Assembly: GCF_000238915.1 (NCBI RefSeq)
Contig: NZ_BAEG01000014.1
Location: 1 to 64,000 of the forward strand
Length of the DNA: 64,000 nt
From: Arthrobacter globiformis NBRC 12137
GTDB taxonomy: Bacteria > Actinomycetota > Actinomycetes > Actinomycetales > Micrococcaceae
Direction: 5' to 3'
In this document: one piece after another, positions 8,483 through 10,890 of the stretch
How the letters are laid out: each line of letters begins with the position of its first letter
Position numbering within the stretch: the stretch's first letter is position 1
Notes under the pieces: model-generated
What the model was told of the DNA's origin: nothing
What the model saw: only the letters and a program-made list of their open reading frames with translations
Databases searched by the model: none
Position numbers and translations under genes: made by a program

Positions 8483-8527
8483 GACGGCGGCGGGTCACCT
8501 CACGGTGGCCCGCCGCCATCGTCTTTT
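8483..8527 (+). terminator. Intrinsic terminator of purA
   Basis: GACGGCGGCGGG...CCCGCCGCCATCGTC hairpin with TCAC near the loop, followed by TTTT, 43 bases after the purA stop. Confidence 0.85.
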
Positions 8528-8581
8528 AATCCGCTGTTTCTGGGAAGAGCATGCCCGTCTGAAAAAAGTTTCCGGAACCGC

Positions 8582-8609
8582 GTAACCTCCCAGCCCGTCC
8601 CGGCGATTA
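8582..8609 (+). promoter_or_regulatory. Putative ECF-type promoter A (GTAACC-N16-CGATTA)
   Basis: GTAACC at 8582-8587 and CGATTA at 8604-8609, spaced by 16 bases, with an A-rich AAAAAAGTTT stretch about 15 bases upstream. The same two hexamers with the same spacing and a similar upstream A-tract occur at 10804-10831, on the other side of the sigma factor gene. AAC in the -35 and CG in the -10 fit promoters of extracytoplasmic-function sigma factors in general. Assignment to the sigma factor encoded at 9330 is inference. Confidence 0.6.
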
Positions 8610-8622
8610 CGTATATGTAAGC

Positions 8623-8662
8623 GCCGGGACGGCGGTTGTCCCCCATCGGCCGCCGTCCCGGC
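8623..8662 (+). ncRNA. Leader hairpin with C-rich loop (copy A)
   Basis: A perfect 13-bp stem (GCCGGGACGGCGG at 8623-8635 against 8650-8662) closes the loop TTGTCCCCCATCGG. The loop core TTGTCCCCCATC is identical to the loop of the hairpin at 10844-10885, while the stems differ in sequence. Here there is no T-run after the stem; the RNA continues into the gene starting at 8691, so this is probably a structured 5' leader. The exposed five-C loop recalls the C-rich loops of actinobacterial 6C-type RNAs, but with only one hairpin. Confidence 0.55.
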
Positions 8663-8690
8663 CTTCAATCAACCAAAGGATTTTTTTCTG

Positions 8691-9227
8691 ATGAAGAGTG
8701 TTAGCAAGACCACCAAGATTGCTGTCGCAGCCGCCATCGTCGCTGTCGGAGGTTTCTCCAGCATCGGACTGGCCAACGCCGCCCAGGTGTCCGGCTCGCA
8801 GCATGCAGAGGTGACCCCCGCTACGCCCGCCGCCCCGGCCGTTCCTGCCACCGAGGTCCCGGCAGTGCCCGCTGTCCCGGCCACCCCGACGGTTCCGGCC
8901 GCCCCCGCCGCCAAGGCCAAGGCTGCCGGCGAAGCTGCGGACGCAGCCGATGCCGCAGTGGAAGCTGACAAGGACAACGCCGCCGCCAACGCCAACGTCT
9001 CCGCCGGGGACAAGGCTGCCGGCGCCGACGTAACCGCAGCAATCCCCGCCGTTCCCGCTGTTCCCAATGGCGCCGGCGTTCCCGCTGCCCCGGCCGTTCC
9101 CGCCGTTCCTGCCGCCCCGGCTGTGCCGGATGTAACGGACCACGTCGCCAAGCCGGCCGCGCCGTCCGCCGCTGCAGACGCTGACGTCAAGGCTGACGCT
9201 GCTGCCGACCTGCCCACCGGCAAGTAG
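8691..9227 (+). CDS. Secreted Ala/Pro/Val-rich protein, unknown function
   Basis: 178 residues from ATG 8691, with AAAGGA at 8676-8681 as ribosome binding site. A typical signal peptide (MKSVSKTTKIAVAAAIVAVGG...GLANAAQ) is followed by two blocks of PAVPAVPATP-type repeats (about 45-75 and 120-150) and, between them, an acidic Ala/Asp/Lys helix (AADAADAAVEADKDNAA). There are no cysteines and no enzyme motifs. It sits just upstream of an ECF sigma gene and behind promoter A, so it may be a target of that sigma factor. The Pro-rich composition resembles the C-terminal part of the gene product at 9875. I do not recognise a family. Confidence 0.75.
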   Translation: MKSVSKTTKIAVAAAIVAVGGFSSIGLANAAQVSGSQHAEVTPATPAAPAVPATEVPAVPAVPATPTVPAAPAAKAKAAGEAADAADAAVEADKDNAAANANVSAGDKAAGADVTAAIPAVPAVPNGAGVPAAPAVPAVPAAPAVPDVTDHVAKPAAPSAAADADVKADAAADLPTGK

Positions 9228-9270
9228 TCCACAGCACGCGAAACAGGGCGTTCCCCGAATAGGGGCGTGA

Positions 9271-9305
9271 GGTGTGCGGCGGTAGGCTTACTACCGCCGC
9301 GCACC
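9271..9305 (+). promoter_or_regulatory. 15-bp hairpin just before the sigma factor gene
   Basis: GGTGTGCGGCGGTAG pairs with CTACCGCCGCGCACC around the loop GCTTA. No T-run follows. It ends 7 bases before the purine-rich ribosome binding site of the sigma gene, so it could be a weak terminator for the upstream gene or a translational control element. Confidence 0.55.
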
Positions 9306-9329
9306 TGCAGTAAAGGGAAGGACAGCTCC

Positions 9330-9878
9330 TTGGCAGCTCAGCTGACCGATGACGAATTGTCAGCAGCCCTTTCTGGCGACCCCTCCGGCTTCAGCGCTGT
9401 CTACAGCGTCATTTCCCCCGCCGTCCTGGGCTATTTCCGGGCCCGGGGCGTGGACGACGCCGAAGCCCTCACACAGGACGTCTTCGTGGATGTCCTGCCC
9501 AAGCTCAGCAATGTCAGGGGCGGCCACTCCGGGCTGCGGACATTCATCTTCTCGGTGGCGCACGCCCGGCTCGTGGACTACCACCGCCGGTCCGCGAGGA
9601 CGCCGCATTTCACCGAATTCGATCCGCTCGAGGACCACAGGCGGTCGAGTTCCGCCGAGGATGAGGTCCTGGGTTCGATGGGCGGAATCACATCTGCCCT
9701 GGCCACGCTCAATGACGACCAGCGGGAAGTGCTGGTCCTGCGGATCGTTGCGGACCTGTCGGTTGAACAGGTCGCCGGCATCATGGACAAAACCCCCGGG
9801 GCCATCAAACAGCTCCAGCGCCGCGGGCTCATCGCCCTGCGCGAACTCGTCAAGGAAAAGGACCACGCAGCATCATGA
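9330..9878 (+). CDS. ECF-type RNA polymerase sigma factor
   Basis: 182 residues from TTG 9330, preceded by AAGGGAAGGA; the open frame upstream is not protein-like. Region 2 is seen in SVYSVISPAVLGYFRARGV and DAEALTQDVFVDVLPKL (about residues 25-65), with the aromatic-rich promoter-melting segment LRTFIFSVAHARLVDYHRRS (about 70-90). Region 4 is the C-terminal helix-turn-helix LNDDQREVLVLRIVADLSVEQVAG... and TPGAIKQLQRRGLIALRELV (about 130-175). It directs transcription of a limited regulon, and its gene overlaps the next by four bases, the usual sigma/anti-sigma arrangement. Two matched promoter-like sites at 8582 and 10804 flank the pair. Confidence 0.9.
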   Translation: MAAQLTDDELSAALSGDPSGFSAVYSVISPAVLGYFRARGVDDAEALTQDVFVDVLPKLSNVRGGHSGLRTFIFSVAHARLVDYHRRSARTPHFTEFDPLEDHRRSSSAEDEVLGSMGGITSALATLNDDQREVLVLRIVADLSVEQVAGIMDKTPGAIKQLQRRGLIALRELVKEKDHAAS

Positions 9879-10402
9879 GTGTCACGCCGGCAGGCCGCGA
9901 AGAAGGAGAGATCCAGGCGATCCTCCTGGATTCCGGGCTCGAAGACGACGCCGATCTCCGCAGGTCCCTCGAAGAACTGCGCGGGTTCGCCCATGACTCC
10001 GCACCCCAACCCCGGGCTGAACTCGCCGCGCTGCTCGTTCACGGCGCATCCGCTTCAGGCGTACTGGCCCACGGCGAGACCCCTCAAAGCATGCCCATGC
10101 GGCGCGCCTCCAACATCGCCAGCCTCGAACTGCACCGCCGCAACCGGCAGCGGCGAATGGGCTTTGTGGTGGGCGCGGCAGTGGTCGGTGCCATGGGCCT
10201 GGGCGCCGGTGCTGTCGCTGCAGCTTCCAGCGAGGACTTCCGCAACAGCGTAGGCCATACGGTGGTCCGGATCTTCCAGCCGACCAGCGATACGACGGCG
10301 CCGACGCCGATGCCCACATCGCCCGCCGACGTTCCGGCTGCTCCGGCGCCGTCGGGTGCTGCGACCAAACCATCGGTCACCGACACCGCCCCGTCGCCGT
10401 AG
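9875..10402 (+). CDS. Probable membrane anti-sigma partner, truncated by an in-frame amber codon
   Basis: 175 residues from ATG 9875, overlapping the sigma gene (ATGA). A cytoplasmic segment of about 90 residues, a basic stretch (LHRRNRQRRM) and one membrane helix (GFVVGAAVVGAMGLGAGAVAAA, about 91-112) are followed by an outer Pro/Ala/Thr-rich tail. The layout fits a one-pass anti-sigma factor, though I see no canonical zinc-binding (HxxxCxxC) anti-sigma domain. The frame ends at TAG 10400-10402 but stays open for 84 more codons to TAA 10655-10657, in the same Pro-rich style (KLPAKPLPAVPTLPGG...VPAKPVPGTP). So the intact gene was probably about 260 residues, and this copy is truncated or uses readthrough. 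Confidence 0.7.
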   Translation: MSVTPAGREEGEIQAILLDSGLEDDADLRRSLEELRGFAHDSAPQPRAELAALLVHGASASGVLAHGETPQSMPMRRASNIASLELHRRNRQRRMGFVVGAAVVGAMGLGAGAVAAASSEDFRNSVGHTVVRIFQPTSDTTAPTPMPTSPADVPAAPAPSGAATKPSVTDTAPSP

Positions 10403-10669
10403 GCACCGGCGACGCCGGTCCAAACGGATCCGGCCTCCTCCAACGGTTCGTCGAACTCATCCGCTGCGAACGGTTCCTCGGATTCCCGTGGAGCGACGAA
10501 GAAGCAGACTCCGCTGCCCGCCGGGCCCGGCCACCTGCCCACGGTCCCCGGATCGGGCATCGCTCCGAAGCTTCCGGCCAAGCCGCTGCCGGCGGTGCCG
10601 ACGCTTCCTGGCGGCATGCCGACCGTTCCGGCCAAACCGGTCCCCGGCACGCCCTAAAGGCAGCAGCCC

Positions 10670-10732
10670 GAGTTTTGTATACTTATTGGCCCCAAACGGC
10701 CGGGCAAAGGCGCGGTACGTGTACAAAAACTC
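10670..10732. repeat. 63-bp palindromic element, copy 1
   Basis: Begins GAGTTTTGTATAC and ends GTGTACAAAAACTC, an imperfect long inverted repeat, with an inner GGCC...GGCC hairpin. A second element of exactly 63 bp with the same ends and a different inner stem is at 22831-22893. It lies 12 bases after the TAA that would end the full-length 9875 gene. No T-run and no target-site duplication are seen. Confidence 0.65.
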
Positions 10733-10803
10733 CTGAGGAGCGGGGCGGGATGCGCCGATTAACCGGGCGGCGAAAAAGTTTTTGAAAAAGTTTTGGAATC
10801 GGC

Positions 10804-10831
10804 GTAACCCTTTCGGGTGTCCCGTCGATTA
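10804..10831 (+). promoter_or_regulatory. Putative ECF-type promoter B (GTAACC-N16-CGATTA)
   Basis: GTAACC at 10804-10809 and CGATTA at 10826-10831, the same hexamers and 16-base spacing as at 8582, again behind an A-rich GAAAAAGTTTT tract. Transcription would start about 6-8 bases later, directly before the hairpin RNA at 10844. Confidence 0.6.
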
Positions 10832-10837
10832 CCCAAG

Positions 10838-10890
10838 TGAGAGTGTCGGGCTGGAAGTTGTCCCCCATCAAATTCCAGCCCGGCATTTTT
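10838..10890 (+). ncRNA. Candidate ~50-nt sRNA: single terminator hairpin with C-rich loop (copy B)
   Basis: A 13-bp stem (10844-10856 with 10873-10885, one G:U pair) encloses a loop containing TTGTCCCCCATC and is followed at once by TTTTT at 10886-10890. With promoter B just upstream, the transcript would be about 50 nt and consist of little more than a terminator hairpin with an exposed five-C loop. The loop core is the same as in the leader hairpin at 8623, but the stem sequence is different, which argues for selection on the loop. A C-rich loop could pair with G-rich ribosome binding sites. It has not been assigned to a known RNA family by any search here. Confidence 0.55.

What the first reader, a model, noticed from the sequence alone, without database searches (positions are those of the whole stretch)
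8555..10890. Two matched promoter-hairpin modules bracket an ECF sigma factor; loops conserved, stems not
At 8582-8662 and 10804-10890 the same design occurs: an A-rich tract, GTAACC, exactly 16 bases, CGATTA, then a 13-bp hairpin with the loop core TTGTCCCCCATC. The stems have different sequences but keep their pairing, so the loop appears to be what is conserved. The second module ends in a T-run and would make a stand-alone RNA of about 50 nt; the first is a leader of a secreted Ala/Pro-rich protein. Between them lie the sigma factor (9330) and its probable membrane partner (9875). The simplest reading is a sigma regulon that includes a tiny C-loop sRNA able to pair with G-rich ribosome binding sites, in the manner of actinobacterial 6C-type RNAs but with one hairpin. 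The regulon link is inference.
Basis: partly seen in the sequence, partly recalled or inferred. Interest (0 to 1): 0.8.

Follow-up and report, generated by a model that had tools for sequence, protein, structure and literature searches.

The report
Sigma-factor-linked C-loop hairpin RNA
Soil bacteria of the Arthrobacter family carry, next to one particular sigma-factor gene, a tiny hairpin whose loop keeps a run of five to seven Cs while its stem changes freely, which makes it a probable new small regulatory RNA that may act on genes with G-rich start signals.

Summary
GCGTAACC-N16-CGATTA occurs about once per genome in 56 of 61 same-genus genomes (61 sites; reversed pattern: 2). That search asked for no hairpin, yet all 30 loci fetched from it have a C-rich loop behind the promoter. 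Across 74 distinct hairpins from seven genera, 11 of 13 stem pairs change on both sides (0 of 500 shuffles as high) and every loop has C5-C7 followed by A (rows chosen partly by the loop). The promoter, loosely defined, lies within 1 kb upstream of this ECF sigma gene in 73 of 80 named loci. The exact promoter plus C-run was found in 0 of 361 genomes of other families of the order. No Rfam family matches, 6C included.

Best reading: an autoregulated BldN/SigD-like sigma factor drives a RNA of about 50 nt (one hairpin, up to four in relatives) that works like 6C, sX13 or RepG, its C-loop pairing with G-rich mRNA sites. Autonomy is supported by copies away from the sigma gene in Sinomonas and by one genome without the adjacent sigma gene. 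Transcription, sigma dependence and targets are inferred; a limited target search found no conserved one.

The parts
8561..8572 (+). A/T-rich tract upstream of promoter 1 (UP-element-like)
   Evidence: Sequence; across 90 non-redundant promoters A+T is 0.69 in the 20 nt at -30 to -11 before GTAACC against 0.36 further upstream
8582..8609 (+). Promoter 1: GTAACC-N16-CGATTA
   Evidence: Exact; the pattern occurs in 56 of 61 same-genus genomes
8617..8664 (+). Leader hairpin 1: inferred start G8617, stem 8623-8635 / 8650-8662, loop 8636-8649 (TTGTCCCCCATCGG)
   Evidence: Fold z -6.1; R1 63.8 bits (the sequence is in R1's training set); T7-G8 after CGATTA in 89 of 90 promoters suggests the start
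8691..9227 (+). Secreted-looking Ala/Pro-rich protein (178 aa), gene behind hairpin 1
   Evidence: ORF; no Pfam family; homologues follow the same promoter in relatives
9330..9878 (+). ECF sigma factor, TTG start, BldN/SigD/ShbA-like
   Evidence: Pfam region 4 over cut-off, region 2 just under; best NCBIfam TIGR02952, below its cut-off; PDB hits include a sigma-D region 4
9875..10402 (+). Probable anti-sigma partner, one likely membrane span; cut short by a TAG here (175 aa, against 233-258 aa in seven relatives' loci)
   Evidence: no Pfam match for this protein and no meaningful PDB match
10770..10795 (+). A/T-rich tract upstream of promoter 2
   Evidence: Sequence
10804..10831 (+). Promoter 2: GTAACC-N16-CGATTA
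   Evidence: Exact
10839..10890 (+). Stand-alone hairpin RNA 2 (about 52 nt): inferred start G10839, stem 10845-10857 / 10872-10884, loop 10858-10871 (TTGTCCCCCATCAA), tail ATTTTT
   Evidence: Fold z -7.9; R1 67.1 bits (in R1's training set); covariation

Best explanation
A BldN/SigD-like ECF sigma factor, probably held by its membrane partner, recognises the promoter AAAA..TTT-cGCGTAACC-N16-CGATTAC at its own locus and starts RNA at the G 8 nt after CGATTA. The product is a RNA of about 45-55 nt that is almost only one hairpin. The stem may end its own transcription, and the loop holds out C5-C7 followed by A. The RNA acts in trans, without an extended single strand, by pairing its loop with G-rich sites near ribosome binding sites of mRNAs, as 6C/B11, sX13 and RepG do. 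It would be the noncoding, repressing arm of the sigma response. In part of Arthrobacter the unit serves as 5' leader (1 to 4 tandem hairpins) of a secreted Ala/Pro-rich protein gene. SHOWN by sequence: promoter, hairpin, covariation, loop constancy, link to the sigma gene, occurrence away from it. INFERRED: transcription, use by this sigma factor, start site, termination, pairing, direction of the effect.
For: Promoter search without any hairpin requirement: 56 of 61 genus genomes, 61 sites, reversed control 2. Of those 61 sites 30 were fetched, and 30 of 30 have a C-rich loop behind the promoter (24 by exact TGTCCCCCAT within 80 nt; the other 6 by reading, partly borne out by the folds). Exact promoter and/or an R1 hit over 60 bits in 60 of 61 genomes, all but G010. 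Covariation: A1, 10 of 13 pairs with two-sided changes, 34 cells against 7.4 shuffled, 0 of 500; 74 distinct hairpins of seven genera, 11 of 13 pairs, 129 cells against 26.7, 96.7% paired, 0 of 500. Sigma homologue within the fetched 3 kb in 30 of 30 loci and in 57 of 59 further loci (many are the same genomes as). Promoter (GTAAC-N16-18-CGAT) within 1 kb upstream of the sigma gene in 73 of 80 named loci; 4 of the 7 misses have under 500 nt upstream. The seven genera with the element are all among the 10 of 32 genera with the sigma factor. T7 and G8 after CGATTA in 89 of 90 promoters point to a start site. Trans action: in four Sinomonas genomes a copy with two tandem hairpins lies away from the sigma gene, promoter exact in three of them; one genome (L093, G292) has promoter and hairpin but no adjacent sigma or partner gene. 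The promoter resembles the reported BldN site CGTAAC-N16-CGTTGA (PMC2375139, passage).
Against: No transcript, start site or sigma dependence has been measured, and the paper searches showed no RNA-seq that settles it. No conserved target was found: GATGGGGGACA sites that recur among 17 genomes are inside coding genes; four single-genome sites lie at possible gene starts (L331, L347, L355, L361) and none of them recurs. Pairs under 11 nt, G-U pairs and other registers were not searched. In part of Arthrobacter the hairpin is a leader of a protein gene. In Sinomonas one of the two-hairpin copies has a variant promoter and a broken C-run in its first loop (L178), and another has only C4 in its second (L179). 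Five g8 loci beside a second sigma paralogue have the promoter but no C-loop hairpin. Many stand-alone copies end in CTCTTT-like tails that are weak as terminators. A sigma factor with one strong site per genome is unusual.
Confidence: 0.55

Rival explanations
1. Cis-acting leader/attenuator: the hairpin is the 5' UTR of an autoregulated sigma (or Ala/Pro-protein) mRNA; it partly stops transcription or stabilises the 5' end, and its loop binds something that tunes read-through.
For: In loci without the Ala/Pro-protein gene the promoter lies about 160-375 nt upstream of the sigma match, same strand. In the window lineage hairpin 1 is followed at once by a ribosome binding site and gene. Tandem hairpins lie in the leader of the Ala/Pro-protein gene in relatives.
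Against: The second window copy lies downstream of the sigma operon, likewise in 8 of 80 named loci, all close relatives of the window (L197-L204). Copies lie away from the sigma gene in four Sinomonas genomes. Promoter and hairpin are present where the sigma gene is missing (L093; one genome). A separate SigA-like -10 seems to lie between hairpin and sigma gene (read by eye; not tested).
Confidence: 0.2
2. Protein-binding RNA (sponge): the C-loop is a binding site for a RNA-binding protein, and tandem copies titrate it, in the manner of CsrB.
For: Loop constant, stem free; number of hairpins varies from 1 to 4, as in sponges with repeated loop motifs (general knowledge, recalled).
Against: No candidate protein was looked for or identified; the loop flanks differ between genera (TTGT/ATCA, TTAT/AACG, GTTT/AACG) and only the C-run with the A after it is constant, which suits pairing with G-runs.
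Confidence: 0.13
3. A remodelled descendant of the actinobacterial 6C RNA that lost one hairpin and came under sigma control.
For: 6C is found in 8 of 39 genomes of the order, all in other families, and in 0 of 61 genus genomes. 6C hairpins there have C-run loops and GC stems of similar layout. Loops in several genera have 6-7 Cs.
Against: No match to RF01066 in the window, in 8 loci even at E up to 5, or in 61 genomes. Only 3 Micrococcaceae genomes were, and both 6C searches ring in only one of 14 control genomes, below its cut-off, so absence is weak. One hairpin in the commonest form; different neighbourhood.
Confidence: 0.1

Closest known systems
6C RNA / B11 of Actinobacteria (Rfam RF01066)
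   Same: C-run loops on GC stems; in M. abscessus either of B11's two C-rich loops can repress a target whose 5' UTR has six Gs (PMC10470900, passages)
   Different: RF01066 not matched; usually one hairpin, C5 in Arthrobacter; sigma-linked promoter; other neighbourhood (in mycobacteria the regular 6C gene sits near Ms1: PMC9569102, passages)
RepG of Helicobacter pylori
   Same: A C/U-rich loop of a terminator hairpin pairs with a G-repeat in an mRNA leader, and is reported to be sufficient for repression (PMC8295292, passages)
   Different: Unrelated bacterium; RepG has a further stem-loop; no sigma link known to me; our target is unknown
sX13 of Xanthomonas
   Same: Loops with 4C/5C act on G-rich motifs near start codons; independent of Hfq (PMC3771888, abstract and passages)
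   Different: Three stems; no sigma link known to me; unrelated lineage
BldN (Streptomyces) / SigD (mycobacteria) ECF sigma factors
   Same: Best profile TIGR02952; a sigma-D region 4 among the PDB matches (organism recalled); promoter CGTAAC-N16-CG, as for BldN
   Different: Below the BldN equivalog cut-off (81.9 of 206.45 bits); -10 CGATTA instead of CGTTGA; proposed output is a hairpin RNA
Sigma-E-dependent sRNAs of enterobacteria (MicA, RybB; recalled, not searched)
   Same: An envelope-type sigma factor with an sRNA as repressing arm
   Different: Single hairpin with C-loop; actinobacterial; no Hfq-type seed seen

Membership tests
6C RNA (RF01066) | Match to the covariance model | tested here: not met
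   Window at gathering score: none; 8 loci at E up to 5: none; 61 genus genomes: 0 (strict filters; only 1 of 14 control genomes rang, below cut-off)
6C RNA (RF01066) | Two hairpins, each with a C-run loop (definition recalled; PMC10470900 speaks of B11's two C-rich loops) | tested here: not met
   Both window copies are single hairpins; two or more only in some relatives
6C RNA (RF01066) | Runs of six or more Cs (recalled) | tested here: not met
   C5 in the window; C6-C7 in some other genera
6C RNA (RF01066) | Loop pairs with G-rich mRNA sites | not testable with these tools
   Search for exact 11-nt complements gave no conserved start-site target; needs experiment
ECF sigma factor | Sigma-70 regions 2 and 4 only | tested here: met
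   PF04545 43.2 and PF08281 36.4 bits over cut-off; PF04542 23.7 against 24, just under; TIGR02937 66.7 against 42.9
BldN equivalog (TIGR02952) | Score over the curated cut-off | tested here: not met
   81.9 against 206.45 bits
C-loop antisense sRNAs as a working class (RepG, sX13, B11) | C-rich apical loop kept while the stem varies | tested here: met
C-loop antisense sRNAs as a working class (RepG, sX13, B11) | Discrete small transcript | not testable with these tools
   No RNA data at hand; promoter and start-site conservation only

The most novel reading that the evidence does not exclude
In Micrococcaceae an ECF sigma factor has, as its one strong-consensus output, a minimal single-hairpin C-loop RNA. 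Sigma factor and RNA form a compact module that took the place of 6C RNA in this family, and its strength evolves by multiplying the hairpin (one to four loops) and by attaching the array to a protein gene.
Probability: 0.3. Interest if true: 0.85.

Novelty: new variant of a known kind. Interest (0 to 1): 0.72.

Why it matters
If right, it is a regulatory RNA family without a match in Rfam 15, built from almost nothing but one hairpin, and the first sRNA that I know of (recalled; the searches listed none) with this tight a genomic link to an actinobacterial ECF sigma factor. It gives a clean test system for how C-loop RNAs choose targets in GC-rich bacteria without a long single-stranded seed, and a natural series of 1, 2, 3 and 4 loops in which to test dose. 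It also gives a group of BldN/SigD-like sigma factors a concrete candidate promoter and product.

Tried and rejected
Ordinary terminator of purA: rejected; a terminator-like hairpin lies at 8486-8517, and in relatives the C-loop hairpin lies up to nearly 800 nt behind purA.

Chance resemblance: rejected (reversed-pattern controls 0, 2 and 0).

Weak R1 hits: one search reports 49 of 245 family genomes at E up to 0.001 in 12 of 32 genera, but many of these are weak. Of 38 weak places that I fetched and printed, 30 are plain GC terminators without a C-run loop; 5 are real and lie beside the sigma gene (g20, L398-L402); 1 is a Sinomonas second site (L410); 2 have CCCCCAT loops but no promoter and no sigma gene (L407 of g10, L416 of g22; a third such is L117 of g10) and are left open.

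Wider regulon: own genome with up to 2 mismatches shows no excess over control (95 against 100).

Conserved targets: 69 printed sites of GATGGGGGACA were read (a few are the RNA's own locus or the same place twice) and clustered by flank similarity. Clusters seen in three or more genomes number seven; all lie inside long open frames, away from a start, the largest being gpsA (name recalled). Four single-genome sites lie at possible starts (L331, L347, L355, L361).

Partner as a known anti-sigma family: no Pfam match for the window protein (two families with one weak chance match each among the 10 members of A3) and no meaningful PDB match.

Labels in the tree come from a crude script (for example L203, L230 and L236 are labelled); I use the tree only to say that the element is spread over several sigma clades and that one paralogue clade mostly lacks it. 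A4 was filtered before counting: of 131 matches 77 had CCCC in the loop window, 74 of them distinct; 54 were dropped, 52 of which are the mirror-strand copies of the same hairpins. The 90 promoters were likewise kept only if a C-run hairpin followed.

Not examined: the sigma loci of g19, g24 and g27.
Full report
WHAT IS THERE. Two modules of the same build lie at 8561-8664 and 10770-10890, on the + strand. Each has an A/T-rich tract, GTAACC, 16 bases, CGATTA, and a hairpin with TTGTCCCCCATC in the loop. The hairpins fold with z -6.1 and -7.9. Between them lie a gene for a secreted-looking Ala/Pro-rich protein (8691), an ECF sigma factor (9330) and a probable membrane partner (9875); purA lies upstream and a CoA-binding-domain gene downstream. 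The sigma factor's best profile is the BldN family, under its cut-off, and its PDB relatives include a sigma-D factor. By sigma identity the nearest named relatives are Arthrobacter sp. ISL-65, sp. AFG20 and A. ipis (95-96%).

IS IT MORE THAN CHANCE? A search for CGATTA plus loop found 36 of 61 same-genus genomes, reversed control 0. A search for the promoter alone (GCGTAACC-N16-CGATTA) found 56 of 61 genomes with 61 sites, reversed control 2. That search did not ask for a hairpin. Thirty of the 61 sites were fetched: 24 have TGTCCCCCAT within 80 nt, and the other 6 have one to four hairpins with C-rich loops (read by eye, partly borne out by the folds). A covariance model from 28 sequences (R1) hits 53 of 61 genomes at E up to 0.001; I count 49 of 61 with a hit over 50 bits. 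Weak hits are mostly plain terminators: 30 of 38 that I printed. Only G010 of the 61 has neither exact promoter nor model hit.

THE STEM VARIES, THE LOOP DOES NOT. In alignment A1 10 of 13 pairs have changes on both sides (34 cells, shuffled mean 7.4, 0 of 500). With hairpins of seven genera (74 distinct rows, kept because they have CCCC in the loop window) it is 11 of 13 pairs and 129 cells against 26.7, with 96.7% of cells paired. All 74 loops have 5 to 7 Cs followed by A, while the flanking letters change by genus. The row choice and the model favour C-loops, so the less biased evidence for the loop is and the promoter-found loci. There all nine g32 loci and all four g31 loci beside the sigma gene have a C5-C6 loop, and in the four g32 loci away from it (L166, L167, L169, L174) I saw none. 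In the same call two g8 loci beside one sigma paralogue have a C7 loop, and five g8 loci beside a second paralogue have the promoter and an Ala/Pro-rich gene but no C-loop hairpin, which counts against the hairpin being obligatory.

PROMOTER AND START. Ninety non-redundant promoters, kept because a C-run hairpin follows, give AAAA..TTT (A+T 0.69 against 0.36 further upstream), cGCGTAACC, 16 nt, CGATTAC, and then T at 7 and G at 8, each in 89 of 90. I infer the start at that G: 8617 and 10839. The motif is close to the BldN site CGTAAC-N16-CGTTGA reported in PMC2375139 (passage).

LINK TO THE SIGMA FACTOR. A sigma homologue lies in 30 of 30 loci and in 57 of 59 loci (L093 and L117 lack it; many of these are the same genomes as). 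Of 80 named loci found by the sigma protein alone, 73 have GTAAC-N16-18-CGAT within 1 kb upstream, 59 of 80 with a hairpin that my script detects, and 8 (L197-L204, the window's close relatives) with a second module downstream. Four of the seven misses have less than 500 nt of upstream sequence; the other three are L249, L267 and L276. In 245 family genomes the sigma factor (E up to 1e-35) is in 75, in 10 of 32 genera; the seven genera in which I saw the element (g1, g7, g8, g18, g20, g31, g32) are among them. In the order, exact promoter plus C-run occurs in 13 of 396 genomes, all 13 among the 35 Micrococcaceae and none among 361 others; that exact pattern would miss variants such as the CGATGA of g20.

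CIS OR TRANS? In most relatives the order is purA, promoter, hairpin, sigma gene, partner gene, which would also suit a sigma leader. Four facts favour an independent RNA. The second window copy lies behind the operon. In four Sinomonas genomes a copy with two tandem hairpins lies away from the sigma gene (L177, L178, L179 = L411, L410); its promoter is exact in three and a variant in L178, and both loops have C5 in L177 and L410, while L178 has a broken run in the first loop and L179 C4 in the second. In L093 the sigma and partner genes are missing from their usual place but promoter, hairpin and tail remain (one genome, whose only sigma hit lies elsewhere). And the inferred start sits directly before the stem. 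Against it: in the window's lineage and sister lineages the hairpins are leaders of the Ala/Pro-protein gene.

HOW IT MAY WORK. A run of 5-7 exposed Cs on a stable stem recalls the working part of B11/6C (PMC10470900, passages), sX13 (PMC3771888, abstract and passages) and RepG, where the terminator loop is reported to suffice (PMC8295292, passages). I therefore propose pairing with G-rich sites near start codons. The targets are unknown. In 17 genomes the exact 11-nt complement recurs in three or more genomes only inside coding genes; four single-genome sites lie at possible starts; shorter or wobble matches were not tested.

KNOWN OR NEW? Rfam 15 has no match in the window beyond SRP RNA and a tRNA. 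In eight loci at E up to 5 it gave four matches below their gathering scores, none at a hairpin. 6C was not found in 61 genus genomes but was in 8 of 39 genomes of the order, all of other families (3 of the 39 are Micrococcaceae). Both 6C searches ring in only one of 14 control genomes, below its cut-off, so I hold the absence lightly. The paper searches (listings) showed no description of this RNA. One paper on A. oxidans KQ11 names four sRNAs on plasmid regions (PMC6696678, passages); I could not compare their sequences. The library holds open-licence papers only; the 6C papers of Mai 2019 and Pahlke 2016 are not held and were seen as reference titles only. Other papers seen as passages: PMC9569102, PMC6789036, PMC12306157.

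VERDICT. A real, conserved, sigma-linked element restricted, as far as searched, to Micrococcaceae; very probably transcribed; most probably a minimal C-loop antisense RNA. It is a new variant of a known kind, not a member of 6C by the tests run.

Noticed in passing
window 10400-10402: The partner gene is cut by an in-frame TAG (175 aa), while seven relatives' loci read 233-258 aa; the outer tail is lost here, or it is a sequencing error.
   Followed up: partly
L193, L194, L195 (G019): One genome has three exact promoter copies; two lie without the sigma gene in the fetched stretch and carry multi-hairpin arrays, one of them followed by the start of an Ala/Pro-protein gene that breaks off into other sequence.
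   Followed up: partly
L145, L137, L193: Tandem arrays repeat a unit of about 50 nt; several units include the GTAAG start region, as if the whole RNA unit had been copied (read by eye).
   Followed up: no
L231, L236, L239, L241, L255: A second sigma paralogue has a variant promoter (GTAACTTTCCC..CGAT) about 0.9 kb upstream and no C-loop hairpin that my script saw; g8 genomes show a similar split with an Ala/Pro-rich gene.
   Followed up: partly
L416 (g22), L117 and L407 (g10): Hairpins with CCCCCAT loops but without the GTAACC promoter or the sigma gene; hits of the same score occur in three g22 genomes.
   Followed up: partly
L101:1625-1639: In one Sinomonas the sigma gene's own start region reads ATGGGGGAAACCGTG, which begins with the complement of UCCCCCAU of the loop; I did not see this in the Arthrobacter loci printed beside it.
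   Followed up: no
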